Assembly: GCA_001800135.1 (NCBI GenBank)
Contig: MGUU01000014.1
Location: 62,001 to 126,000, forward strand
DNA from: Elusimicrobia bacterium RIFCSPLOWO2_02_FULL_39_32
GTDB taxonomy: Bacteria > Elusimicrobiota > Elusimicrobia > 2-02-FULL-39-32
DNA length: 64,000 bases
Reading direction: 5' to 3'
In this document: positions 3 through 13,442 of the stretch, one piece after another
How positions within the stretch are numbered: the stretch's first letter is position 1
How the letters are laid out: every line of letters begins with the position of its first letter
The notes under the pieces: model-generated
Seen by the model: only the letters and a program-made list of their open reading frames with translations
Database searches by the model: none
What the model was told of the DNA's origin: nothing
Position numbers and translations under genes: made by a program

Positions 3-809
3 GGTTATGATATCGTTGATTGCCCTAAGTGTGAATTAGCTTTTGTCGCAGAAATGCCAACTGAGCATGATCTAAGCGGGCACTACGATGAAAACTATTT
101 TGAAGGGGATGTTTCAAAATTTGGATATGCGGATTATGAGAAAGAAAAAAAATGTCGCATGATAACTTATGCGGCAAAAAAAAGAGAAATTGAGCAGTTA
201 GTGCGTTCAGGAAGTTTATTGGATGTTGGCTGTGCGGATGGATCTTTTCTTGAATTATTTGACTCGTCATGGAAATGTGAGGGGGTTGAAATTTCTGAAT
301 CCATGGTTCAGCAAATCAGTGAAGAAAAACGTAAAAATATTTTTTGCGGGGACCTAATGAAATTAAATGGAAAGGAAAGAATATATGATGTCATAACGAT
401 GTGGGATTTAATTGATCATGTTCCTTTACCTCTTCAGGTTATAAAAAAAGCGAACGCTTTATTAAAACCTGACGGATTTCTTTTCTTAAATGTTGGGGAT
501 CGAAATAGTCTATTTGCAAAACTTAACCGTAAAAGATGGTATATCTTTATTCCTCCTACCCATCTCTATTACTACAATAAAAAATCCATTATTAAACTTT
601 TAGTGGAAGGCGATTTCAAAATTATTAAAATTAGCTATCCGGGAAAATACGTTACCTTAGGGCTATGCTTCTGGCGCTTAAGATACATCATCCCCTGCTC
701 TCTCATAAATCTACTAAGCAGCTGGGTTAACAAAAGTTTCTTATCTAACATAAAAATATATATTAACTTCTTTGACATCATGACTATAGCTGCTGTTAAG
801 CCTAAGTAA
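3..809 (+). CDS. SAM-dependent methyltransferase, 5' end cut by window edge
   Basis: The reading frame is open from the first bases of the window, so the gene starts upstream; the ATG at 54 is internal. The visible N-terminus carries a CPKC pair, probably half of a small zinc ribbon of the kind that precedes the methyltransferase domain in many sugar C-methyltransferase-like proteins. The class I Rossmann motif I (LLDVGCADGSFL) follows, then a motif II-like acidic strand and a post-motif GFLFLNVGD strand. It probably methylates a sugar or lipid-linked glycan, judged from the glycosyltransferase genes next to it. The substrate cannot be read from the sequence. Confidence 0.8.
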   Translation, partial: GYDIVDCPKCELAFVAEMPTEHDLSGHYDENYFEGDVSKFGYADYEKEKKCRMITYAAKKREIEQLVRSGSLLDVGCADGSFLELFDSSWKCEGVEISESMVQQISEEKRKNIFCGDLMKLNGKERIYDVITMWDLIDHVPLPLQVIKKANALLKPDGFLFLNVGDRNSLFAKLNRKRWYIFIPPTHLYYYNKKSIIKLLVEGDFKIIKISYPGKYVTLGLCFWRLRYIIPCSLINLLSSWVNKSFLSNIKIYINFFDIMTIAAVKPK

Positions 810-842
810 ATAAATGTTTTACATTGCTGCCATCCAGTTTTT

Positions 843-2042
843 ATGAGGATTTTATTTCTTTCCCATACTTTCCCTCTTCCAATAGATGACGGGGTCCGGC
901 TCCAGTGCTACTATCTACTTAAAGAACTTGCAAAGTCTCATTCTATTTATCTCCTTTGTTTGAACGATAGTGCAGTTTCCAATGATGCCAAAGAAAAAAT
1001 AAGGAGTTTGGGAATCAGACTAGTGGATGTTATTGAGCACCCCGTGCCCCGCAGTTTTTGGCAACGCCTTGCCAATAGTTTATTTGACCCTGTTCCTTTC
1101 TGTGTAAGACAATTTGAATCAAAATTGTTAAGGAAAACTCTAAAAAACTTCCTGTCCAACACGCCCATTGATGTTGTTCATGTTAATTATTTATCTATGT
1201 CTATTTATCGTGACGAATTTCCTTTGATCCCTTCTATTTTTTTCCCACTGGATGCAGTCTCTATGATGTTCGAGAGAAATATTCGCTTTGAGACAAATAT
1301 TTTTAGAAAATTTTATATGTACTTACAGTGGAAAAAAGTCATCAACTTTGAATCGAAAATTCTGCTAAAATTTGAAGAAAATATGGTTGTCTCTCCGGTA
1401 GATAAAGACCATTTGCTCAAGCGTTGCCCAAAAGCAAAAATTGAGGTCTCTCCTCTTGGACTAAATACTGATTATTTTATTCCGAAACAAAATGTCTTAG
1501 AAGAATCTGATTCTATTCTTTTTCGGGGGGTTATGAATTTTTTTCCAAATACGGATGCTGTTCGTTACTTCTATAAAACGATTTTCCCAATGGTGCGCAA
1601 ACAATCCCCTTCCGCAAAATTCTATGTGGTTGGCAAATCACCTTCTTCAGATATATTAGCGTGGGCTAAAGAAGATTCTGGATTGACTCTCACAGGGTTT
1701 GTGGATGATATAAGAATATGGATGGCGAGAGCTTCTGTTGTAGTATGTCCTATGAGAGTTGGTTCAGGTATAAAGATTAAAATTATGGAATCCATGTCCA
1801 TGGGAAAAGCAATCGTTTCTACCTCTTTAGCTTGCGCTGGTCTTGAAGTAAAAAATGAAGAGCATCTCTTAATAGAAGATGACCCTTTTCTATTTGCCCA
1901 AAAAATTGTTTATCTCCTTAAAGATAGGCAAGCTAGAATTAAACTGGGTAACAAAGCTCGTAAATTTGTATTAGAATCTTATTCTTGGAGTAAAAATACA
2001 GCAGATTTTGAAAAATTATATAAACGTGCTTTTTTACGTTAA
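843..2042 (+). CDS. GT4-family glycosyltransferase
   Basis: This 399-residue GT-B glycosyltransferase begins with the GT4 N-terminal strand and loop (MRILFLSHTFPLPIDDG). Its C-terminal donor-binding half contains the block GSGIKIKIME at residues 307-316, ending in the conserved Glu316, followed by GKAIVST. The pattern FRGVMNFFPN near residue 227 is typical of the PEP-CTERM/EpsH-associated sugar transferase branch. It has no membrane segment, so it should act on the cytoplasmic face on a lipid-linked acceptor. It sits 33 nt after the methyltransferase and 9 nt before a membrane glycosyltransferase. Donor and acceptor are unknown. Confidence 0.88.
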   Translation: MRILFLSHTFPLPIDDGVRLQCYYLLKELAKSHSIYLLCLNDSAVSNDAKEKIRSLGIRLVDVIEHPVPRSFWQRLANSLFDPVPFCVRQFESKLLRKTLKNFLSNTPIDVVHVNYLSMSIYRDEFPLIPSIFFPLDAVSMMFERNIRFETNIFRKFYMYLQWKKVINFESKILLKFEENMVVSPVDKDHLLKRCPKAKIEVSPLGLNTDYFIPKQNVLEESDSILFRGVMNFFPNTDAVRYFYKTIFPMVRKQSPSAKFYVVGKSPSSDILAWAKEDSGLTLTGFVDDIRIWMARASVVVCPMRVGSGIKIKIMESMSMGKAIVSTSLACAGLEVKNEEHLLIEDDPFLFAQKIVYLLKDRQARIKLGNKARKFVLESYSWSKNTADFEKLYKRAFLR

Positions 2043-2051
2043 ATCATTTAA

Positions 2052-3758
2052 ATGAAATCTATAACTGAAAATCAAAAAATCAAAGTCTTTTTAATTTTAA
2101 TTGTTTTGTTGAGCGCTTTTCTACGGGTGTGGGGAATAAATTGGGGATTGCCGTATGAATATCAAAGTGAAGAATATAAAGTCATTAAATATGCATTGCG
2201 TATGGGTGGGGGGGATTTAAACCCACACTCTTTTGAATATCCATCTTTGTATTATTATTTTATTCTATTTGTCTATGGATGTTATTTTTTGTTAGGAAAA
2301 TTTTTGGGAAGCTTTCAAAGTGTTAATGATTTTGCCCAATTATTTGTAAGAGATCCCACAAATTTCTATCTGATTGGCAGATCTCTGGAGACTTTATTTG
2401 GGATTGGTATTATCATTCTTACCTATCAAATAGGGAAAAAAATATTTTCAAGAAACGTTGGAGTAATTTCAGCATTTATGATGGCAATCTTGCCCAGCGC
2501 TATTAATACAGGTCATGTTACAAAAGGAGATTCAGCAGCTATATTTTTAGGATTACTTTTCTGGCTGTGTACCTATAAAATTTATGAGAGTGGGGAAAGA
2601 AAATATTATTGTTTATCGGGACTATTGTTGGGGGTAGCTATCTCTGCAAAATATTATATGGCCATCATGGGCATTAATCTTTTGATGGCCCATTTTTTGA
2701 GAGATCGGAAATCCTTAAATAATTTAATTTTTTCCTTAGTTCTTATTCCTTTATTTTTTGTTATCGGCAGCCCTTACTCACTTTTATCTTACCCGGAATT
2801 CCTAAAGTTTTTTAAAGATCAAAGCAACTCTTTTACTACATTCTCTGGGACTTCTATGAACTATGTCCAGCGGGCTCTGTTCGCTTTGCAACGCCTGTTA
2901 AATATGAGCGATTTAAAAAGAAATTTTTTACTTGGAAGTTATGGATTTGGTTTTCTTTCTCTAACAGGAGCGATATGTCTAGTATGGGGTCGAAAAAAAG
3001 AAACTTTCCTTTTGATAGTTCCTATTGTTACATATTTTCTAGTTGTAGCTACATTTTATCATCCAGCAGCAGGCTACCTAGCGCCAATTTTTCCTCTTTT
3101 TTCTATTTGCGGCTCTTATCTAGTGTGTGATGTATATAAAAAGATGCACTGGATGAGATGGATCATTTTTACGTTCTTTCTTTTAGCGATTCCTAGCTCT
3201 TTTGGAGAAAGTGTTCGAATCTCTTATTCCTATACTTTGCAGGATACTCGGACTATTGCTAAAAATTGGATTGATTCTAATATTCCAAAAGGAAGCAAAG
3301 TCTTGATGGACCAATTAGTAAGTTCACCTCCTTTAGAAATGAGCGAAAAGCAGTTAAGAAGATATTATGATATTGCGATTAAATCGAATCATTATAAAAA
3401 GGAATTTTTCCGATTAAAATTAGAAACTTTGGATCCTGCAAAAAAATCGTATGAGATATTTTTAATTAAAAGATCTGCAAATGAGATTGGTTCCCTGAAA
3501 CATCAAGTAATAGAGGTACAAAAGGTACAAGATTTAGTGGAAATCAGAGGAGACGAAAGCGATCTAGAAACTCTAAGAAAGAAAGGGATTCAGTATGTAA
3601 TCGTCAATAGTATAGCGAAAAAAAATGCAGTAGATAGCATCCCATGGCTGGCTAATTTCTATAATCATCTGCCCGGGTACGCGCAGCTAGTTAAAACTTT
3701 TGAACCAGAATCTTCCCTGCACCCTGGTCCAATCATACAAATTTACAAACTACTCTAA
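2052..3758 (+). CDS. Polytopic membrane glycosyltransferase, GT39/ArnT-like
   Basis: This 568-residue protein has about ten hydrophobic helices in its first two thirds and a soluble C-terminal domain. The first helix is followed by the loop INWGLPYEYQSEE with a pair of acidic residues, where GT-C enzymes of the GT39/PMT/ArnT group carry their catalytic acid. Such enzymes move a sugar from a polyprenyl-phosphate carrier to a lipid or protein acceptor on the outer face of the inner membrane. The gene contains a G7 run at 2208-2214 that does not break the frame. Acceptor identity is unknown. Confidence 0.8.
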   Translation: MKSITENQKIKVFLILIVLLSAFLRVWGINWGLPYEYQSEEYKVIKYALRMGGGDLNPHSFEYPSLYYYFILFVYGCYFLLGKFLGSFQSVNDFAQLFVRDPTNFYLIGRSLETLFGIGIIILTYQIGKKIFSRNVGVISAFMMAILPSAINTGHVTKGDSAAIFLGLLFWLCTYKIYESGERKYYCLSGLLLGVAISAKYYMAIMGINLLMAHFLRDRKSLNNLIFSLVLIPLFFVIGSPYSLLSYPEFLKFFKDQSNSFTTFSGTSMNYVQRALFALQRLLNMSDLKRNFLLGSYGFGFLSLTGAICLVWGRKKETFLLIVPIVTYFLVVATFYHPAAGYLAPIFPLFSICGSYLVCDVYKKMHWMRWIIFTFFLLAIPSSFGESVRISYSYTLQDTRTIAKNWIDSNIPKGSKVLMDQLVSSPPLEMSEKQLRRYYDIAIKSNHYKKEFFRLKLETLDPAKKSYEIFLIKRSANEIGSLKHQVIEVQKVQDLVEIRGDESDLETLRKKGIQYVIVNSIAKKNAVDSIPWLANFYNHLPGYAQLVKTFEPESSLHPGPIIQIYKLL

Positions 3759-3825: not shown

Positions 3826-4308
3826 ATGAAAAAATTGATTAAGGAGACTCTTCAAAAATTTCCAAGACTCTATTTCTTTATCAAGAATTATATTCTCCAT
3901 CCTTTACGGTACTCGAAAGAAAGAGTTTATTTTGAAATAGAAAAGAAAAAACGAACCTATGTCTTAAAACAGATGGCTGCCATAAAAAAAGTTTTTAACC
4001 TTTCAGTTCTATCGAATTTAACTTTGCAAAAAGATGACATCATAGTGACCTTGAGAGATGGGAGAAAGTTCTTTTGGTATCCAGAAGAAAGTAACAGCCT
4101 TTTTACGATCCCAAGAGAAGGAATCTATGAACCTGAGGAAACTGAGGTTTTAAAGCATTTAATTTCCAAAGATGATATCGTTTTTGACATTGGCGCTAAC
4201 TTTGGATATTACACTATACTGATGCTTCGACAAATTTGGGGTGGGGGGGGGGGGGACATAGTTTTGAGCCCCTACCTGAAACATTCCTTAAACTTAAAAA
4301 AAATATAG
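3826..4308 (+). CDS. FkbM-type methyltransferase, N-terminal part (frame broken at poly-G)
   Basis: This is the upstream half of a class I methyltransferase of the FkbM family. Motif I (DIGANFGYYT) is intact, but the frame runs into a 13-G tract at 4243-4255 and stops at 4308 with unrelated residues. The next frame (to 4820) carries the rest of the domain, starting HSFEP. Adding one G or removing two would join them. Three start codons lie together (GTG 3820, ATG 3823, ATG 3826); the AGAGG at 3814-3818 best fits 3826. Either the gene is phase-variable and OFF here, or the base count is wrong. FkbM enzymes usually O-methylate sugars. Confidence 0.85.
   Translation: MKKLIKETLQKFPRLYFFIKNYILHPLRYSKERVYFEIEKKKRTYVLKQMAAIKKVFNLSVLSNLTLQKDDIIVTLRDGRKFFWYPEESNSLFTIPREGIYEPEETEVLKHLISKDDIVFDIGANFGYYTILMLRQIWGGGGGDIVLSPYLKHSLNLKKI
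4243..4255 (+). repeat. 13-nt poly-G tract inside FkbM methyltransferase gene
   Basis: Thirteen uninterrupted G residues follow GGGGT inside the coding sequence and separate two halves of one methyltransferase domain that lie in different frames. With 11 or 14 Gs the gene would be continuous. Homopolymers of this length slip easily in replication, which is the classic basis of phase variation in surface-glycan genes, and they are also a classic site of sequencing error. Other G runs in the window reach only 7-8. Confidence 0.95.
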
Positions 4309-4820
4309 CTCTAAATGGCTTTGCTGATAATATCTCATTGAATAATGTTGCCTTAGGAGAACGTAATGGAGAATTGACTATACGGTATCCAAAACGTTTT
4401 GGATCTGGATTGGCTACTTTTTCGGATCCCTATAATGATCTTCTATCTAAAAGAGTATGCTCTATAACAACGCTGGATAATTATATTTCAGAAAAAAATA
4501 TCAAAAATATTTCCTTTATTAAATGTGATGTGGAAGGATATGAATTGTTTGTATTAAAGGGCTTTCAATTACTTTCAAAATTGGAACTATTACCAATTTG
4601 GCTTTTAGAGACTCAATGGGTAACTACAAAGGGACTAGGCTATCATCCTAAAGATATCTTTTCATATCTTAAAAAATTTGGATACTGTTTTTACTACTGT
4701 TTTCAAAAAAAAATTTATTTGCTTAGGGATTTTGAGAATCTGCCGGGTTACAATTTTTTTTGTTTGAACCCAACTGTCCATTTCAAGCTAGCTAAGTTAG
4801 CTGGATTTCCCCAATTTTAA
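4257..4820 (+). CDS. FkbM-type methyltransferase, C-terminal part (second frame)
   Basis: This frame continues the FkbM domain immediately after the poly-G tract. It begins with the HSFEP strand (usually AFEP, motif II, binding the SAM ribose), continues with ETFLKLKKNI and the typical FkbM core containing KCDVEGYE, and ends at 4820. No credible ribosome-binding site or start lies at its beginning; the TTG at 4236 is part of the G-rich stretch. It is therefore best read as the second exon-like half of the gene starting at 3826, expressed only when the tract length restores the frame. Confidence 0.85.
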   Translation, partial: HSFEPLPETFLKLKKNIALNGFADNISLNNVALGERNGELTIRYPKRFGSGLATFSDPYNDLLSKRVCSITTLDNYISEKNIKNISFIKCDVEGYELFVLKGFQLLSKLELLPIWLLETQWVTTKGLGYHPKDIFSYLKKFGYCFYYCFQKKIYLLRDFENLPGYNFFCLNPTVHFKLAKLAGFPQF

Positions 4821-5398: not shown

Positions 5399-6844
5399 AT
5401 GTCTAATTTACACCTCTATCAAAAAATTTTTCGTTTAACCTTCCTGCATTTCGGAATCCGTTCTTTTTTTTCTTTAACGACCGCTGTTTTAATGATTTTT
5501 ATCATGCGCAAAATGGGACCACAGGAATTTGGAAAATTTTCTTTAGTTTTGCAGCTTGCCGTTACTTCTGGTTTATTTCTTTCTTGGGGTTCTGCAAGCA
5601 CTTTATCGAAGTTCCTTCCTGAACTCAAAGTTCATCCCTCCCAAGCTCGTCTTTCTTCGCAAGCGATTGAAGTCAGCTTGATCTCAATGGGAGTTTTCCT
5701 GCTCTTCTTTTTCCTACTTTATTTTTTAGCCCCGTCAATTTTACCAGATGAGATTAAGTCAATTAAGTTAATTTTTGTTCTTTTTGTTGGATTGTTCGCT
5801 ATCTTCAATGTTTTTCAAGGAATTTTTCGAGGGCTTGGTAAATTTGTGCAATGGTCTTTAATTGAGGGCAGTAACGATTTTATTGCTAGAATTTTCACGC
5901 TCTTGTTGCTTTTATTTTCTAGCACGACTTATCAAAATACGCTTTATTGTTTTAGTATGAGTCTCTTAATTATGACTCTTTACTCTTTTTCTATTATCCG
6001 AAAACAATTTTTTCTTTCTGATTTAAAAATTGATCCAAAAGTGTCCCATTTTGCTGTCATTATGCTAATGGGATCGGTTATTTTTATTGTGGGAACTTCT
6101 GCTGACGCAGTTCTTTTAAGAGCGCTGCTCAAGGATCCTCAAGAAGTAGGATATTATTTTGCTGGAATCCGAATCCCTCAAATTTTTCAAAGTCTACTTT
6201 TAACACCTCTCTCGATCCCGTTTCTCTATTATTTTACTCATCCAGACACTTCGCATACTCGAGAACAAATTATTAAATTGGGCACCAAACTGCTTGGGCT
6301 CATTTGTGGAGTTGTATCTTTAATTTTTTTTAGTTTTGGCTCAATTATCGTCTCTTTGCTGTATGGGGATTCTTATTCAAAGAGCATTGATGTTTTACGA
6401 ATTTATGGGTTTGTATTTTTTATTATTGGGATGCAGTCGTTTGTCGGACCTTTTTTTGTGGCGATTAATAAAGTTCATGTTCAAATGTGGATTGGTTTTT
6501 TCTCGGTTCTCAGCTTGTTAGCTCTTGATTTTTTGTTGATCCCACATTGGAAATCAATGGGTTCAGCCTTGGCGAACGTCATCATGCTCAGCTTGCAAAC
6601 TATTTCTTACATTTATATTTTAGCAAACAACAAAATAGATATTGTCCGCTTTAGTCTTTTATTAAGCGGAGGCATGCTATTAAGTGTTAGTTTGGAGCTT
6701 TTTTTTCTTCCTTACAGCGCTCTTCCCTTTTTTCTTTTTTTTGTTTGGATAAGCCGGTTGTTTTCAAAAGAAGAAATAGATAAAATTTGGCTTGTGATTT
6801 CTTCTCAAAATAAAGAAAAGCTTACTGCTGAGTTGCCAGCATGA
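5399..6844 (+). CDS. Wzx-type polysaccharide flippase (MOP superfamily)
   Basis: This 481-residue protein has 12 or more predicted transmembrane helices and the architecture of O-antigen/teichoic-acid flippases: an N-terminal amphipathic stretch, then MGPQEFGKFSL after the first helix, the usual early loop of the family. It would move lipid-linked glycan units from the cytoplasmic to the outer leaflet of the inner membrane. It starts 2 nt after the regulator and overlaps the radical SAM gene by 4 nt, so translation is coupled. A flippase amid glycosyltransferases points to a Wzx/Wzy-type surface polysaccharide, though no Wzy polymerase is identified with confidence. Confidence 0.88.
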   Translation: MSNLHLYQKIFRLTFLHFGIRSFFSLTTAVLMIFIMRKMGPQEFGKFSLVLQLAVTSGLFLSWGSASTLSKFLPELKVHPSQARLSSQAIEVSLISMGVFLLFFFLLYFLAPSILPDEIKSIKLIFVLFVGLFAIFNVFQGIFRGLGKFVQWSLIEGSNDFIARIFTLLLLLFSSTTYQNTLYCFSMSLLIMTLYSFSIIRKQFFLSDLKIDPKVSHFAVIMLMGSVIFIVGTSADAVLLRALLKDPQEVGYYFAGIRIPQIFQSLLLTPLSIPFLYYFTHPDTSHTREQIIKLGTKLLGLICGVVSLIFFSFGSIIVSLLYGDSYSKSIDVLRIYGFVFFIIGMQSFVGPFFVAINKVHVQMWIGFFSVLSLLALDFLLIPHWKSMGSALANVIMLSLQTISYIYILANNKIDIVRFSLLLSGGMLLSVSLELFFLPYSALPFFLFFVWISRLFSKEEIDKIWLVISSQNKEKLTAELPA

Positions 6845-8196
6845 AAGTTGTATTGATATTTCCTCCGCTCGTTTTAAAACACCGTTACGCGCATAGTGTT
6901 GGGGATGCGGGTGGAAACCTTCCTCCTTTAGGGCTTCTTTATCTTGCTGCCGTCTTAGAAAAGGCCGGACATGAGGTACATATCATTGATTCTCCTGTAG
7001 AAAACCTTGATTTAGAACAGGTGATTGAACGGATCAATTCGTTGCAGCCGAATTTTATGGGAGTTTCGTCCATTACTTCTCTAGCAGAAAAGACGAAAAG
7101 TCTCTGCCAGGGGGTTCGCAAGCAGTTCCCTAATATCAAAATTTTTGTAGGCGGCCCTCACCCAACGGCTCTTCCGGAGGATGTTTTAAAGGAAACCGGA
7201 GCTGATGTCGTGATTCGGGAAGAGGCAGAGAATGTCATTTTAGATATGATCGAAAATTTTGAAAAGTATGCTCAGCAAAAAATTGTGGATGCGGGCAAAG
7301 TAAAAAATTTAGATGATTTGCCTTTCCCTGCACGACACTTAATTGATTTAAATCGGTATACCGCTTTACCGAACAATTATAAACGAACTCCAAATTCGAT
7401 CCATGTAGTGACGTCGCGCGGGTGCCCTTATCCATGCACTTTTTGTTTTGATGCAAAAAGCGGTTTTCGGCAAAGGAGCATCCCTCATGTGATGGATGAG
7501 CTTCGGCATTTAAAAAAAAAATATGGCGCGGTTGAGATCGCCTTCTGGGATGATACTTTTACAGTGAATCGAAAATGGGTGATAGAATTTTGTGAAACAA
7601 TGATCCGCGAAAAAATGAATATGATCTGGGGCTGCTACTCACGTTTAAACTTAGTTGATGCAGAACTTTTGAGAAAAATGAAAGAAGCGGGGTGTTGGAC
7701 GATGTTTTTTGGGATCGAATCCGGCGACCAAGAATTGTTAGACAACATCAAAAAACTGATGACGGTTAAGCAATTAAAAGAGAAGGTGAGGTTGGTCCAA
7801 TCTTTTGGAATTGAAATTCGTGGTTCCTTTATGGTAGGAATGCCTGGAGAGACTCCCGAGAAAGCGCGTAAAACCATTGATTTTGCAATTGATTTAGACC
7901 CTGACTACGCGCAGTTTTCCATTACGACGCCTTATCCAGGTACAGAACTCTATAAAGAAGTCTCTAAGTGGGGCACTTTAAGCGAAGAATATAGCGAGTT
8001 TCATGGCTGGTCCCCAGTTTTTGTACCGAAAGGATACAAAAGCGCAGAAGAGTTAAAAGCAATCAATCGAGAAGCGTTTGAAAAATTTTATTTTAGGCCA
8101 AAATTTATTTTAAAAAAACTTTTCAAGATTCGATCTTGGACTGATATTCGTCGCTATTGGAAAGGGTTTCGGTTTGTTTTAGGAATGACAAACTAA
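6841..8196 (+). CDS. B12-binding-domain radical SAM enzyme
   Basis: This 451-residue enzyme has an N-terminal cobalamin-binding-type Rossmann domain (to about residue 150, with GGPHPTALPE near 104-113). A radical SAM core follows with the cluster motif at C195, C199 and C202 (CPYPCTFC). Class members include BchE, hopanoid and lipid modifying enzymes and many glycan or natural-product methylases. The classic DxHxxG cobalamin lower-axial motif is not apparent, which is common in this class. It overlaps the flippase by 4 nt and abuts the next gene without any gap. It may modify the lipid or sugar part of the surface glycan; the substrate is unknown. Confidence 0.88.
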   Translation: MKVVLIFPPLVLKHRYAHSVGDAGGNLPPLGLLYLAAVLEKAGHEVHIIDSPVENLDLEQVIERINSLQPNFMGVSSITSLAEKTKSLCQGVRKQFPNIKIFVGGPHPTALPEDVLKETGADVVIREEAENVILDMIENFEKYAQQKIVDAGKVKNLDDLPFPARHLIDLNRYTALPNNYKRTPNSIHVVTSRGCPYPCTFCFDAKSGFRQRSIPHVMDELRHLKKKYGAVEIAFWDDTFTVNRKWVIEFCETMIREKMNMIWGCYSRLNLVDAELLRKMKEAGCWTMFFGIESGDQELLDNIKKLMTVKQLKEKVRLVQSFGIEIRGSFMVGMPGETPEKARKTIDFAIDLDPDYAQFSITTPYPGTELYKEVSKWGTLSEEYSEFHGWSPVFVPKGYKSAEELKAINREAFEKFYFRPKFILKKLFKIRSWTDIRRYWKGFRFVLGMTN

Positions 8197-9798
8197 ATGA
8201 CGATAGAAACTGCAATTTTTTTAACAATTATTCTTGTTTTAGCTTTCTTTTTGCGTTTTTATCATTTAAAAAAAAGAGGTCTTCTTTATTGGGATGACGG
8301 CGTACGCATGCAAGAAGTTCTATTTTTAGAGGAATTGGCTTCATTTCTGAAAAAAAATTTGAATCGAATTTTAGCCCGAGAAATTTCTTTAAAAGAGTCT
8401 GCTCCTCGTTTTCGAGGTCTCTATCATTTTGACAGCAATCCTCTAAACATTTTCTGTTATTGGGTTGTGTCTCTGTTTACAAAGAACATTGAATTTTCTG
8501 GATTAGTTGCAAATGCTGTTTTAGGAGTTCTTTCCGTTTTAGGAACTTTTTTCCTGGCACAACTTGTTTTTGGAACAACGGTAGGTCTTCTTTCTGCGCT
8601 TGTGTTAGCCCTTTCTGCTTATCATCTCAACTATTCGCGATCCATTTATGCAGAAGTCAGTTGCAGCGCTTTTTATGTTTGGGGAACTTATTTTTATTTT
8701 TTAAGTTTTAGAACCAATCATCCTTTATTGATCCTTTTAGCTGGATTTTTCATTGGATGCGCTTTTACCTGTAACTCTCGCCAATTTTATCTTCCTTTTT
8801 TCTTTGTGTTGTACGAACTGACATCGCTATTTTTCCAACCCTTTGACATAATATTTTCTCGACTGATTATGTTAGGGATTTCAATGTTTTTGCCTTTAAT
8901 GCTGATTGAAGAGTTTTTTGTATTTTTGCGCGCGGTTGGGTATCCTTATATGAGTTACTTTATGCAACTTTATGAGAGAACGGGACAAAGGCTAGCAATT
9001 GATTTACGATTTCCTTCCTTTAAAATCTTTTGGAAAACATTTTATTCGTTTGAGGGAATCTTGGCGTTGGGTTTTTTAATCTGGGGCGCCATTCTCAATT
9101 TGAAAAATCCTTCGTCTCCAGCGATTTTGATTTTAGCGCAGTGTTTTTTTCCAATTTTATTTTGGAGCTCTCGCCCAACCAACCTCTTAGAGTGTAGAAA
9201 AGGAAGTATCGGCACTTATCAGATTGCAGTTCCTAGGTTAGCCTCTAGTTGCATACATGGCTTGACGATTGTAGTGGCTGTAGGACTTAGTTCGTTAGGC
9301 AATTTCTTTCCTTATGGACTAGGAATTTTTATTGTTATCGCTCTTTGGAAATGTTGGAAAATAGTTTGCGTGGAATCGGGATACAAAAAAGCGATTGAGT
9401 TCATCCATAGTCAAGGGGATTGGAGTTACATCAGTTTTTGTCATCCTATTTCAGACTATTATGCAAGCCGTGAGAACGAGGTGATCCATTTTGATAAAGT
9501 GAATGCTCCTCTGGAAGAACTTTACAAAAAGAATCAATGTCGTTATTTGCTTTATGTGGATACATTGCACAAAAATAGTTTTCGCTTTTTAAAATTTTCT
9601 TACCTCGAACCAGTTTTATCTTCTTTGAATCCTATTTATTCTGTAGAATTAGGTTACGATCAAATTCTTCCGCTCTATTTTGAGGACAGTTGTCACGACC
9701 CACAGATTTTTAGTCCTTGTTTGATCAAAGTGTATGACCTTGCGCTCCTTTTTAAGCCAATGGCACAAGATTCAATAAAAAAACATGCGACTTTTTAG
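8197..9798 (+). CDS. Polytopic membrane glycosyltransferase, GT39-like
   Basis: This 533-residue integral membrane protein has about ten hydrophobic helices and a soluble C-terminal part. The first external loop carries LLYWDDGVRM, with an Asp pair where GT-C enzymes hold the catalytic acid, and SAYHLNYSRSIYAEV further on matches the GT39/ArnT-like group. Its ATG follows the stop of the radical SAM gene directly. It should use a polyprenyl-phosphate sugar, plausibly one made by the dolichyl-phosphate-sugar-synthase-like GT2 encoded at 10810. It differs in sequence from the other GT-C gene at 2052. Confidence 0.78.
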   Translation: MTIETAIFLTIILVLAFFLRFYHLKKRGLLYWDDGVRMQEVLFLEELASFLKKNLNRILAREISLKESAPRFRGLYHFDSNPLNIFCYWVVSLFTKNIEFSGLVANAVLGVLSVLGTFFLAQLVFGTTVGLLSALVLALSAYHLNYSRSIYAEVSCSAFYVWGTYFYFLSFRTNHPLLILLAGFFIGCAFTCNSRQFYLPFFFVLYELTSLFFQPFDIIFSRLIMLGISMFLPLMLIEEFFVFLRAVGYPYMSYFMQLYERTGQRLAIDLRFPSFKIFWKTFYSFEGILALGFLIWGAILNLKNPSSPAILILAQCFFPILFWSSRPTNLLECRKGSIGTYQIAVPRLASSCIHGLTIVVAVGLSSLGNFFPYGLGIFIVIALWKCWKIVCVESGYKKAIEFIHSQGDWSYISFCHPISDYYASRENEVIHFDKVNAPLEELYKKNQCRYLLYVDTLHKNSFRFLKFSYLEPVLSSLNPIYSVELGYDQILPLYFEDSCHDPQIFSPCLIKVYDLALLFKPMAQDSIKKHATF

Positions 9799-9816
9799 AA
9801 GTCATCGAAAAAAATC

Positions 9817-10797
9817 ATGATTATTGTTCAGACTCCGCTCCGAATCAGTTTTGCCGGGGGCGGAACCGATTTTTCTGAATTTTATAAAAACCATGAAAAA
9901 GGAATGGTGATTAATTCCGCTATTGATAAAAATACTTTTGTGATCGTCAAGGAAAGGTTCGATAAAAAAATTTATCTAAATTGGATGAAAAAAGAAATCG
10001 TGAACTCAGTTCAGGAAATCGAACATGAACTAATTCGAGAGGCGATGAAAAAAACCAAAGTTTCAGAAGGGATTGAAATCACAACTCTTTCTGATGTGCC
10101 TTCTGAAGGATCGGGGTTAGGTTCTTCAAGTAGTCTCACCGTTGGACTTTTGCATGCGCTTTACCTTTATAGCGGCAGAATGGTTGATGCAGAGACACTT
10201 GCACAAGAATCTTGCGAAATCGAAATAGAAATTTTAAAAAAGCCAATTGGAAAACAAGATCAATATATCACAGCTTATGGCGGTTTTAAAAGCTTTGAAT
10301 TTCATTCAAATGGAAAGGTAAAATATACTTCTATACAACTCCAAAATGAAAAATTGCGCAAATTCAATTCGCGTCTTCTTCTATTCTTTACTGGAAAAAC
10401 TAGAAACTCAGCAACAATTCTTTCTAAACAAAAAGAAAATATCAAAAATAAGCAAGAAATCCTTTTACAAATGAGAAGTCAAGTACCAACCATCGAAAAA
10501 TGCCTAAAGAGCAGTCAATTTGATCCTATTGGCTCGATTCTTCATCAAGGTTGGCTCTACAAAAAAGAGCTCGCTTCAAACATTTCTGATCCTATGATAG
10601 ATATTCTTTATGAAAAAGCTTGTAATGCAGGAGCTGTGGGGGGGAAAATTTTGGGCGCTGGGGGGGGAGGATTTTTGCTGCTTTACGTTCAACCGGAAAA
10701 CCAAGATCGCGTACGAGAAGCGCTTGCTGAGCTTAAAGAATTACCATTTAGTTTTCAAAAAGATGGGAGCAAAGCGATCTTTAATGTACGGAATTAA
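9817..10797 (+). CDS. hddA: GHMP sugar kinase, heptose-7-phosphate kinase type
   Basis: This 326-residue GHMP kinase opens with TPLRISFAGGGTDF, the start typical of D-glycero-D-manno-heptose 7-phosphate kinase and related sugar 1-kinases. The ATP-binding motif PSEGSGLGSSS lies at residues 95-105 and the third GHMP motif (GKILGAGGGG) near residue 280. The G-rich third motif is encoded with G7 and G8 runs (10638-10644, 10660-10667). It would make heptose 1,7-bisphosphate or a related sugar 1-phosphate for nucleotide activation. The nearby nucleotidyltransferase and GmhB-like fragment support the heptose reading; a fucokinase-like role is the main alternative. Confidence 0.75.
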   Translation: MIIVQTPLRISFAGGGTDFSEFYKNHEKGMVINSAIDKNTFVIVKERFDKKIYLNWMKKEIVNSVQEIEHELIREAMKKTKVSEGIEITTLSDVPSEGSGLGSSSSLTVGLLHALYLYSGRMVDAETLAQESCEIEIEILKKPIGKQDQYITAYGGFKSFEFHSNGKVKYTSIQLQNEKLRKFNSRLLLFFTGKTRNSATILSKQKENIKNKQEILLQMRSQVPTIEKCLKSSQFDPIGSILHQGWLYKKELASNISDPMIDILYEKACNAGAVGGKILGAGGGGFLLLYVQPENQDRVREALAELKELPFSFQKDGSKAIFNVRN

Positions 10798-10809
10798 TAT
10801 CCTTTTTCA

Positions 10810-11523
10810 ATGGGTCCCTATCTTTCAGTTTTAATTCCAGCTTACAATGAAGAAGATCGGCTTCCTCAAACGCTTCATAAAATTTTTCAGTTCCTTCAAA
10901 AACAGCCTTGGAGTTGGGAAATCATTGCAGTGGATGACGGAAGCAAAGATGGGACAGTCAAAGTAGTTCAAAATTTAGCTAAGCAAATCCCCCTGCGATT
11001 AATCCAACTCCCTCAGAATAAAGGAAAAGGAGCTGCAGTTAGAGAGGGGGTGCTGGCGACAGAAGGGAAATATGTTTTATTTTCTGATGCAGATTTAGCC
11101 ACACCGATAGAAGAGATTTATAAATTGTTGTCTGAAGTCACAGAGGAAAAATATTTAATAGTGATCGGTTCGCGCGCATTACAGAGATCGTTAGTGAGAC
11201 AGAATAATTCGTTTTTACGCGATTTGGCCGGTAAATTTTTTGGGTTATGTGGCCGCTTTTTGTTAGGATTGAACATTCGGGATACTCAATGCGGGTTTAA
11301 GATTTTTGAACGTAATGTTGCTCACTTGCTTTTTTCTAAACAGAAGTTAAACGGAGTCGTTTTTGATATGGAAATTCTTTATTTAGCTAAAAAAGAGGGT
11401 TATAACGTCAAAGAGGTTCCAGTGATTTGGGAACACAATTTTAATACGCGAATCCCCTACAATTTTTCTAAATCAATTGCAGTTTTTTTAGATTTAGTCA
11501 GAATTAAAATTTTTCATGGGTAA
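10810..11523 (+). CDS. GT2 polyprenyl-phosphate sugar synthase-like glycosyltransferase
   Basis: This 237-residue GT-A enzyme belongs to the dolichyl-phosphate glucose/mannose synthase-like branch of GT2. Visible motifs are VLIPAYNEEDRL, VDDGSKDGT (Asp42/Asp43) and the metal-binding SDAD at residues 92-95, then DTQCGFKIF. It would load a sugar from a nucleotide donor onto a polyprenyl phosphate, which GT-C enzymes then use outside the membrane. It has no C-terminal membrane anchor. The gene overlaps the downstream epimerase by 8 nt. Confidence 0.85.
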   Translation: MGPYLSVLIPAYNEEDRLPQTLHKIFQFLQKQPWSWEIIAVDDGSKDGTVKVVQNLAKQIPLRLIQLPQNKGKGAAVREGVLATEGKYVLFSDADLATPIEEIYKLLSEVTEEKYLIVIGSRALQRSLVRQNNSFLRDLAGKFFGLCGRFLLGLNIRDTQCGFKIFERNVAHLLFSKQKLNGVVFDMEILYLAKKEGYNVKEVPVIWEHNFNTRIPYNFSKSIAVFLDLVRIKIFHG

Positions 11524-12643
11524 AGGAAAAGTTCTGATCACCGGTGGAGCAGGTTTTATCGGATCGCATACAGCCGATCTATTGATTGCGGAAGGGTACG
11601 AGGTTCATATTTTAGATAACTTGACAGAACAAATTCATGACGGGTGTTGGCCCGATTACTTAGATTCTCGAATCGAAAAAATTAAAGGAGATGTTAGCCG
11701 TTTTGAGGATTTGGAGAAAGCGCTGGAAGGTATAGATTATGTTTTTCATCTGGCTGCTTATCAAGATTTGTTACCCAATTTTTCTAAATTTTTTTCTGTC
11801 AATACTGTAAGCACCGCTCTTTTATATGAACTAATAGTTAATCGAAAATTTCCAATAAAAAAAGTAGTCTTTGCCTCTTCTCAATTTGTTTATGGAGAAG
11901 GCCATTATCAATGTAGTGAACACGGTCTCTTTCATTCTGGGATGCGTACTATAGCTCATCTGGATCAAGGAAAATGGGACGTGCTCTGCCCGCATTGCCA
12001 GAAGAAAGCTTCCCCTGCGCTTTTAACGGAAGAATCGTTTGATCCCCAAAATCAATACTCTATTTCTAAATATACCCAAGAACTAATTGCGCTCACTTTT
12101 GGAAAAAGATATCAAATTCCAACGGTTGGTTTGAGGTATTCGATTGTGCAGGGAGCGCGCCAATCGTTCCGCAACGCTTATTCCGGAATTTTGAGAGTGT
12201 TCACTTTAAAAATGTTGAAAGGTGAACCTCCTCCGGTTTTTGAAGATGGATTGCAGTTTAGAGACTATGTGAACGTTTTAGATGTTGCCCGAGCGAATGT
12301 TTTAGTTTTGCAAAAAAAAGAGGCAAACTGGAATGTCTTTAACGTTGGTGGAGGGAAGGCTTATACGGTTTTAGATTTTGTATCAATTGTTAATCAAGTT
12401 TTAAAGACTAATATCCAACCACAGATCACTCATCGCTATCGAGTCGGAGATACGCGCCACAGTATATCCAATATTGAAAAAATTCGTTCTTTGGGTTGGA
12501 GCCCTACAAGAACGCCAAAAAATTCTGTAGAAGCTTATGTCCAATGGATTCAAAAACAAAATTTGAAAAAAGACTATGTTGCTGAAGCTGAGAACTTAAT
12601 GGAAAAGACTGGATGCATAAGAAAAGCGGTAACTCCAAAGTAG
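11516..12643 (+). CDS. NAD-dependent epimerase with zinc-type insert, dTDP-rhamnose 4-epimerase-like
   Basis: This 375-residue extended short-chain dehydrogenase has the NAD motif TGGAGFIG at 9-16 and the catalytic YxxxK at Tyr181/Lys185. Between them lies an insert with C133, H136, C158 and C161 (CSEH ... CPHC), a probable zinc site. I recall this insert from bacterial dTDP-L-rhamnose 4-epimerase-like proteins (L-rhamnose to L-talose configuration). It probably makes a nucleotide deoxysugar for the glycan. The exact substrate is inference. It overlaps both the upstream GT2 gene and a short phosphatase-like fragment downstream. Confidence 0.75.
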   Translation: MGKGKVLITGGAGFIGSHTADLLIAEGYEVHILDNLTEQIHDGCWPDYLDSRIEKIKGDVSRFEDLEKALEGIDYVFHLAAYQDLLPNFSKFFSVNTVSTALLYELIVNRKFPIKKVVFASSQFVYGEGHYQCSEHGLFHSGMRTIAHLDQGKWDVLCPHCQKKASPALLTEESFDPQNQYSISKYTQELIALTFGKRYQIPTVGLRYSIVQGARQSFRNAYSGILRVFTLKMLKGEPPPVFEDGLQFRDYVNVLDVARANVLVLQKKEANWNVFNVGGGKAYTVLDFVSIVNQVLKTNIQPQITHRYRVGDTRHSISNIEKIRSLGWSPTRTPKNSVEAYVQWIQKQNLKKDYVAEAENLMEKTGCIRKAVTPK

Positions 12644-12726
12644 CAATTTTTCTGGATCGGGATAGGCTCTTAACTGCTTTTGATTTTAAGAACCATCAGT
12701 CTCTCAATCGGTGGGTGGTGGGATGA
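12613..12726 (+). pseudogene. Short fragment resembling the N-terminus of a GmhB-type HAD phosphatase
   Basis: A 37-codon open frame starts inside the end of the epimerase gene and encodes SKVAIFLDRDRLLTA, close to the opening of D-glycero-D-manno-heptose 1,7-bisphosphate 7-phosphatases (usually FLDRDG with the two catalytic Asp). The rest of the domain, about 140 residues, is missing, and the frame ends in an ATGA overlap with the nucleotidyltransferase start. It is best read as a deletion remnant, with the coupling to the next gene kept. The heptose pathway context (kinase upstream, nucleotidyltransferase downstream) fits. A chance match cannot be excluded for so short a piece. Confidence 0.5.
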
Positions 12727-13442
12727 AAGCAATGATCTTAGCCGCTGGCTTAGGAACGCGATTACGTCCTTTTACTCAAAAAATGCCTAAAATTATGGTT
12801 CCGATTAATGGAAAACCTCTTTTAGCTTATCACCTTCGGATGCTCAAAAAACAGGGAATTAAAGAGATTGGAATTAACCTTCACCATTTTCCTGAAAAAA
12901 TCAATGGATTTCTTAAAAATGGAAAACAGTTTGGCATAAAAGTCCTTTATTCTTACGAAAAAAAGTTGCTTGGAACTGCAGGCGGTGTTAAAAAATTAGA
13001 AAATTTTTTTAAGGAAACTTTTTTGGTTTTGTATGGCGATAATTTGATTGCCGCAAATTTGGAACCGCTGATTCAATTTCATAAAAAGAAAAGAACACTT
13101 GTAACCATTGCGCTTTACCAGTGTTCAGAGCCATGGACACAAGGAGTGGTTCAACTGGATAAAAAAGCAAGAATCGTTGCGTTTATTGAGAAACCACCAA
13201 AAGAGCTGTGCTCTTCCAATGAACTTTCTAATGCAGGGATTTATGTTTTAGAACCAGAGATTTTTTCACATATCCCATCGGACTCTTTTTTCGATTTTGG
13301 GAAGAATTTGTTTCCGGCGCTGGTCTCTAAAAATATTCCGATGTATGGATTTCAACTAGATGGATATGTGAGAGATATTGGGAGTCCTGAACGTTTATCG
13401 AATGTGATTAAAGATATGAGACAAGGGAAGACCAAACAATGA
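12723..13442 (+). CDS. Sugar-1-phosphate nucleotidyltransferase (HddC/GMP-type)
   Basis: This 239-residue protein has the nucleotidyltransferase signature LAAGLGTRLRPFT at its start, VLYGDN as the metal-binding Asp motif and FIEKP before the sugar pocket. In context with the GHMP heptose kinase it is probably the D-glycero-D-manno-heptose 1-phosphate guanylyltransferase; mannose- or glucose-1-phosphate is an alternative. A GTG at 12711 would add MGGG, but the ATG at 12723, inside an ATGA overlap and preceded by a GGTGG-rich site, gives the family's usual start. It overlaps the next gene by 4 nt. Confidence 0.78.
   Translation: MKAMILAAGLGTRLRPFTQKMPKIMVPINGKPLLAYHLRMLKKQGIKEIGINLHHFPEKINGFLKNGKQFGIKVLYSYEKKLLGTAGGVKKLENFFKETFLVLYGDNLIAANLEPLIQFHKKKRTLVTIALYQCSEPWTQGVVQLDKKARIVAFIEKPPKELCSSNELSNAGIYVLEPEIFSHIPSDSFFDFGKNLFPALVSKNIPMYGFQLDGYVRDIGSPERLSNVIKDMRQGKTKQ

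What the first reader, a model, noticed from the sequence alone, without database searches (positions are those of the whole stretch)
4231..4262. Poly-G tract of 13 splits an FkbM methyltransferase: phase-variation candidate
Upstream and downstream frames (3826-4308 and 4257-4820) encode the two parts of one domain, with motif I before and HSFEP after the tract. Eleven or fourteen Gs would restore it; thirteen is OFF. Eleven places motif I and HSFEP 28 residues apart, the spacing I expect in the family. Homopolymer slippage is a known switch in surface glycan genes. An assembly or sequencing error at the tract is the rival reading.
Basis: partly seen in the sequence, partly recalled or inferred. 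Interest (0 to 1): 0.72.

Follow-up and report, generated by a model that had tools for sequence, protein, structure and literature searches.

The report
Poly-G switch in glycan methyltransferase gene
A run of 13 Gs throws a sugar-coat methyltransferase gene out of frame in a groundwater Elusimicrobia genome; the evidence fits a slippage on/off switch of a kind known from pathogens, but only the raw reads can rule out a consensus error.

Summary
The tract is real in the sequence: GGGGT then 13 Gs at 4243-4255, inside an FkbM-family (PF05050) methyltransferase gene. It is the only G/C run of 10 or more in the 2.52-Mb genome and splits the domain into two frames. The only same-genus genome held (a groundwater Elusimicrobia MAG) has the gene intact, 92% identical, with a G-rich but interrupted tract (longest run 9). 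Both halves show purifying selection like neighbouring genes (dN/dS 0.19 and 0.13), and this is the only broken gene among about 60 syntenic ORFs. So the frame was kept until very recently: the break is a switch state, a fresh mutation, or a consensus error. The tract encodes a loop between a helix and a strand, where length changes should be tolerated. Other Elusimicrobia show similar splits: a polysaccharide pyruvyl transferase in an exopolysaccharide locus (same family), another methyltransferase, a pilin. Haemophilus influenzae has a published G12 tract in an FkbM gene, so the kind is known. I put phase variation at 0.58 and consensus error at 0.24; read-level data decide.

The parts
3826..4242 (+). 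5' part of the FkbM methyltransferase gene, with SAM motif I (its frame stays open to 4308)
   Evidence: aligned to the intact same-genus gene at 92% identity, dN/dS 0.19
4243..4255 (+). Uninterrupted G13 tract, encoding a loop between helix and strand of the methyltransferase fold
   Evidence: loop position from the model of the intact same-genus protein
4256..4820 (+). 3' part of the FkbM gene in another frame, from HSFEP to the stop
   Evidence: PF05050 E 3.4e-11, TIGR01444 E 2.2e-20; dN/dS 0.127
54..3758 (+). Upstream neighbours: Methyltransf_23 methyltransferase, group 1 glycosyltransferase, PMT_2-type membrane transferase
5399..13442 (+). Downstream neighbours: polysaccharide flippase, B12-binding radical SAM enzyme, GHMP kinase, GT2, epimerase, sugar nucleotidyltransferase (surface-glycan locus)

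Best explanation
A contingency (phase-variable) gene. The long G tract gains or loses single Gs by replication slippage. In about one register of three the FkbM methyltransferase is made whole and can O-methylate a sugar of the cell-surface glycan. In the others translation stops shortly after the tract and the enzyme is cut just after motif I. The assembled genome shows an OFF register. Shown: split domain, intact relative, selection on both halves, uniqueness of the tract, loop position. Inferred: slippage in living cells, mixed lengths in the population, and the glycan as substrate.
For: Only G/C run of 10 or more in the genome. Same-genus gene intact, with a G-rich tract at the same place. 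dN/dS 0.19 and 0.127 on the two halves, neighbours 0.06-0.20. Only broken gene among about 60 syntenic ORFs. Tract falls in a loop, top fold match FkbM 2py6. Surface-glycan locus. Similar split of a polysaccharide pyruvyl transferase by G10 in an exopolysaccharide locus of a genome of the same family, and of a methyltransferase by G13. Precedent: (G)12 in an FkbM gene of H. influenzae (PMC2651432); G runs of 7 or more are treated as phase-variable in Campylobacter (PMC6321876).
Against: No length variation seen: one MAG consensus only. The same-genus gene has no long pure tract. There is just one such tract in the genome, where known users of this switch often have many. The organism is a groundwater bacterium with no known host.
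Confidence: 0.58

Rival explanations
1. Consensus error: the tract's true length keeps the frame, and the assembler or the reads gave a wrong count. The gene would be a normal, always-on methyltransferase.
For: Purifying selection on both halves and the intact same-genus gene fit this equally well. Illumina data can give spurious indels in homopolymers, above all beyond 14 bases (PMC8808543). Several poly-G runs of 12 or more in other genomes lie at contig ends.
Against: All other syntenic genes are intact despite A/T runs of 8-10 and G runs of 7-8. The tract is mid-contig. Named core genes with G/C runs of 10 or more in other genomes were in frame in the sample, so such runs are usually counted well enough to keep a frame. 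Even a corrected length would leave a long, slippage-prone tract.
Confidence: 0.24
2. A fresh, ordinary loss-of-function indel in a run that grew long by chance: a young pseudogene with no selected switching.
For: The same-genus tract is interrupted, so switching is not conserved; low dN/dS cannot tell a young break from a switch.
Against: Pure runs this long are hardly expected by chance, and slippage at G13 would itself make the break reversible.
Confidence: 0.13
3. The break is bypassed: ribosomal or transcriptional slippage on the G run makes some whole enzyme from the out-of-frame gene.
For: Long G runs are slippery for polymerases and ribosomes (own knowledge); a -1 shift would enter the downstream frame.
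Against: No stimulatory structure downstream (fold z-score +1.0). The same-genus gene needs no frameshift.
Confidence: 0.05

Closest known systems
Haemophilus influenzae 86-028NP ntHI0694, FkbM-family methyltransferase gene with a (G)12 repeat (PMC2651432)
   Same: Same protein family, nearly the same G-run length, low-GC genome (38%), proposed role in O-methylation of a surface glycan
   Different: There the repeat is in the 5' end of the gene; here it is in mid-domain, between motif I and HSFEP. Host-adapted bacterium versus groundwater Elusimicrobia.
Campylobacter poly-G phase-variable genes, including SAM-dependent methyltransferases (PMC6321876)
   Same: G runs inside reading frames, frame-dependent ON/OFF states, methyltransferases among the targets
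   Different: Campylobacter has many such tracts with length differences recorded between isolates; here there is one tract and no variation data
Split polysaccharide pyruvyl transferase in an Elusimicrobia genome of the same family (L039/L099)
   Same: A G run (10) splits a glycan-decorating enzyme inside an exopolysaccharide locus
   Different: Different enzyme family; also known from one MAG consensus only

Membership tests
FkbM-family methyltransferase (PF05050 / TIGR01444) | Match to the family profile above the curated cut-off | tested here: met
   3' part 44 bits against a cut-off of 22.7 and 73.6 against 37.7; intact same-genus protein 58.3 bits over profile positions 1-171
FkbM-family methyltransferase (PF05050 / TIGR01444) | SAM-binding motif I and FEP motif at family spacing, Rossmann-like fold | tested here: met
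   Motifs present but in two frames; family spacing 25-28; fold of the same-genus protein best matches FkbM 2py6
Repeat-mediated phase-variable (contingency) gene | A long simple repeat inside the reading frame, well beyond chance | tested here: met
   G13, the only run of 10 or more in the genome
Repeat-mediated phase-variable (contingency) gene | An otherwise functional gene, with the frame kept by selection | tested here: met
   dN/dS 0.19 and 0.127; intact same-genus gene
Repeat-mediated phase-variable (contingency) gene | Repeat length varies between cells or strains and changes expression reversibly | not testable with these tools
   No reads and no second genome of the species; the same-genus tract differs in make-up and length but is another species
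Repeat-mediated phase-variable (contingency) gene | Long repeat kept at the same place in relatives | tested here: inconclusive
   Same-genus gene is G-rich at the place but interrupted, longest run 9; distant homologues have no G run over 6

The most novel reading that the evidence does not exclude
Elusimicrobia, including free-living groundwater lineages, use poly-G slippage to switch surface-glycan and pilus genes on and off: an unreported contingency-gene strategy in this phylum, perhaps driven by phages or grazers rather than host immunity.
Probability: 0.35. Interest if true: 0.6.

Novelty: new member of a known kind. Interest (0 to 1): 0.42.

Why it matters
Phase variation by homopolymer slippage is mostly described in host-adapted bacteria. 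A switchable glycan methyltransferase in an uncultured groundwater lineage would suggest that pressure from phages or grazers is enough to select it, and it can be tested directly on metagenome reads. It also warns that such genes are called as two broken ORFs in metagenome-assembled genomes.

Tried and rejected
Frame breaks first suspected in a thiolase (L066), an LptF-like permease (L077), a NuoL-like gene (L182) and a methyltransferase (L194) turned out in frame on reading all three frames. Programmed frameshifting: no downstream structure. The same-genus genome's own 13-G run lies at the very end of a CheY-like gene (L041); no close orthologue was found in the window's genome. Class-wide enrichment of long G/C runs in glycan genes is suggestive, not significant. 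No paper on phase variation in Elusimicrobia was found in the held library.

Full report
What is there. The window holds GGGG-T-G13 at 4238-4255, with G13 at 4243-4255 as reported. The upstream frame (3826-4308) carries SAM motif I; the downstream frame (to 4820) carries HSFEP and the rest of an FkbM domain. The tract is the only G/C run of 10 or more in the 2.52-Mb genome. Extrapolating the window's run-length decay, 0.005-0.03 runs of 13 or more would be expected by chance in the genome.

What the relatives show. The only same-genus genome held is a groundwater Elusimicrobia MAG (JACPBF010000001.1). It has one open frame of 340 codons (332 aa from the ATG) across the gene, 92% identical, and its PF05050 match runs across the tract. 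Its tract reads GGGTGGGAGGAGGGGGGGGGAGG: G-rich but interrupted, longest run 9. More distant homologues have no G run longer than 6 there, and their motif spacing is 25-28 residues, most often 28; the same-genus gene has 31. The G-rich loop is therefore seen only in this genus, and the pure G13 only here.

Is the gene dead? There is no sign of it. dN/dS against the same-genus gene is 0.19 (5' part) and 0.127 (3' part), inside the range of the intact neighbours, 0.06-0.20. Among about 60 syntenic ORFs this is the only one whose frame breaks (one other two-frame match is an antisense ORF), although the region holds dozens of A/T runs of 8-10 and several G runs of 7-8. The break is thus recent, reversible, or an artefact of the consensus.

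Where the tract falls in the protein. A model of the intact same-genus protein (mean pLDDT 76; about 87-92 around the tract) puts the tract in the loop between helix 128-137 and strand 145-149, and its best PDB match is FkbM 2py6. A loop there should tolerate a varying number of glycines (inference). An out-of-frame tract removes most of the fold.

Setting. The genes around it encode a flippase, glycosyltransferases, a PMT-type transferase, a GHMP kinase, an epimerase and a sugar nucleotidyltransferase: a surface-glycan locus. That the enzyme acts on this glycan is inference from the setting.

The wider class. In a sample of long G/C runs from Elusimicrobia genomes I found other genes split in the same manner. 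A polysaccharide pyruvyl transferase is split by G10 inside an exopolysaccharide locus of a genome of the same family (L039, L099; the neighbours in L099 were judged by reading). A methyltransferase domain is split by G13, both parts matching Methyltransf_23 (L154). A pilin gene is interrupted by G10 (L046). A PMT-like membrane protein is interrupted by G17, by reading only (L200; no Pfam match). Named core genes with such runs (pantothenate kinase, SAM synthetase, a thiolase, a NuoL-like gene) were in frame. The contrast is suggestive (p about 0.05 on small numbers, with classes drawn after seeing the data). Glycan genes among tract-bearing genes against loci at arbitrary places: 6/20 versus 1/17, p = 0.07, not significant. 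Several runs of 12 or more in other genomes lie at contig ends, a reminder that poly-G also marks assembly trouble; the present one is mid-contig.

Comparison with the known. A (G)12 tract in an FkbM methyltransferase gene is published for H. influenzae 86-028NP (PMC2651432), and Campylobacter has many poly-G tracts in methyltransferase genes (PMC6321876). What it works like is thus known. Membership among phase-variable genes needs observed length variation, which could not be tested here.

Verdict. Observation confirmed. Phase variation is the best-supported reading (0.58); consensus error is the main rival (0.24). The kind is known; the phylum and the free-living setting would be new.

Noticed in passing
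L043, L073-L076 (genome G041): Poly-C runs of 10-12 sit in a similar leader sequence a few dozen codons upstream of several type IV pilin genes (GFTLIELLVVVLIIGI) in one Elusimicrobia genome: possible contingency loci for pilins.
   Followed up: partly
L123 and L127 (genomes G197, G202): C15 and C30 runs at the same place, a proline-rich linker, of one gene in two species of a genus; both consensus sequences are out of frame after the run.
   Followed up: partly
L039 / L099:6488-7775 (genome G008): G10 splits a polysaccharide pyruvyl transferase gene inside an exopolysaccharide locus, in a genome of the window's family.
   Followed up: yes
L150, L153, L155, L158, L159 (genome G152): One MAG has 29 matches to G runs of 12 or more; several lie within 100 bases of contig ends, which looks like an assembly artefact, while one mid-contig run splits a methyltransferase (L154).
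   Followed up: partly
L041 (genome G001): The same-genus genome's only G run of 10 or more, also 13 long, lies at the very end of a CheY-like gene and sets its last residues.
   Followed up: partly
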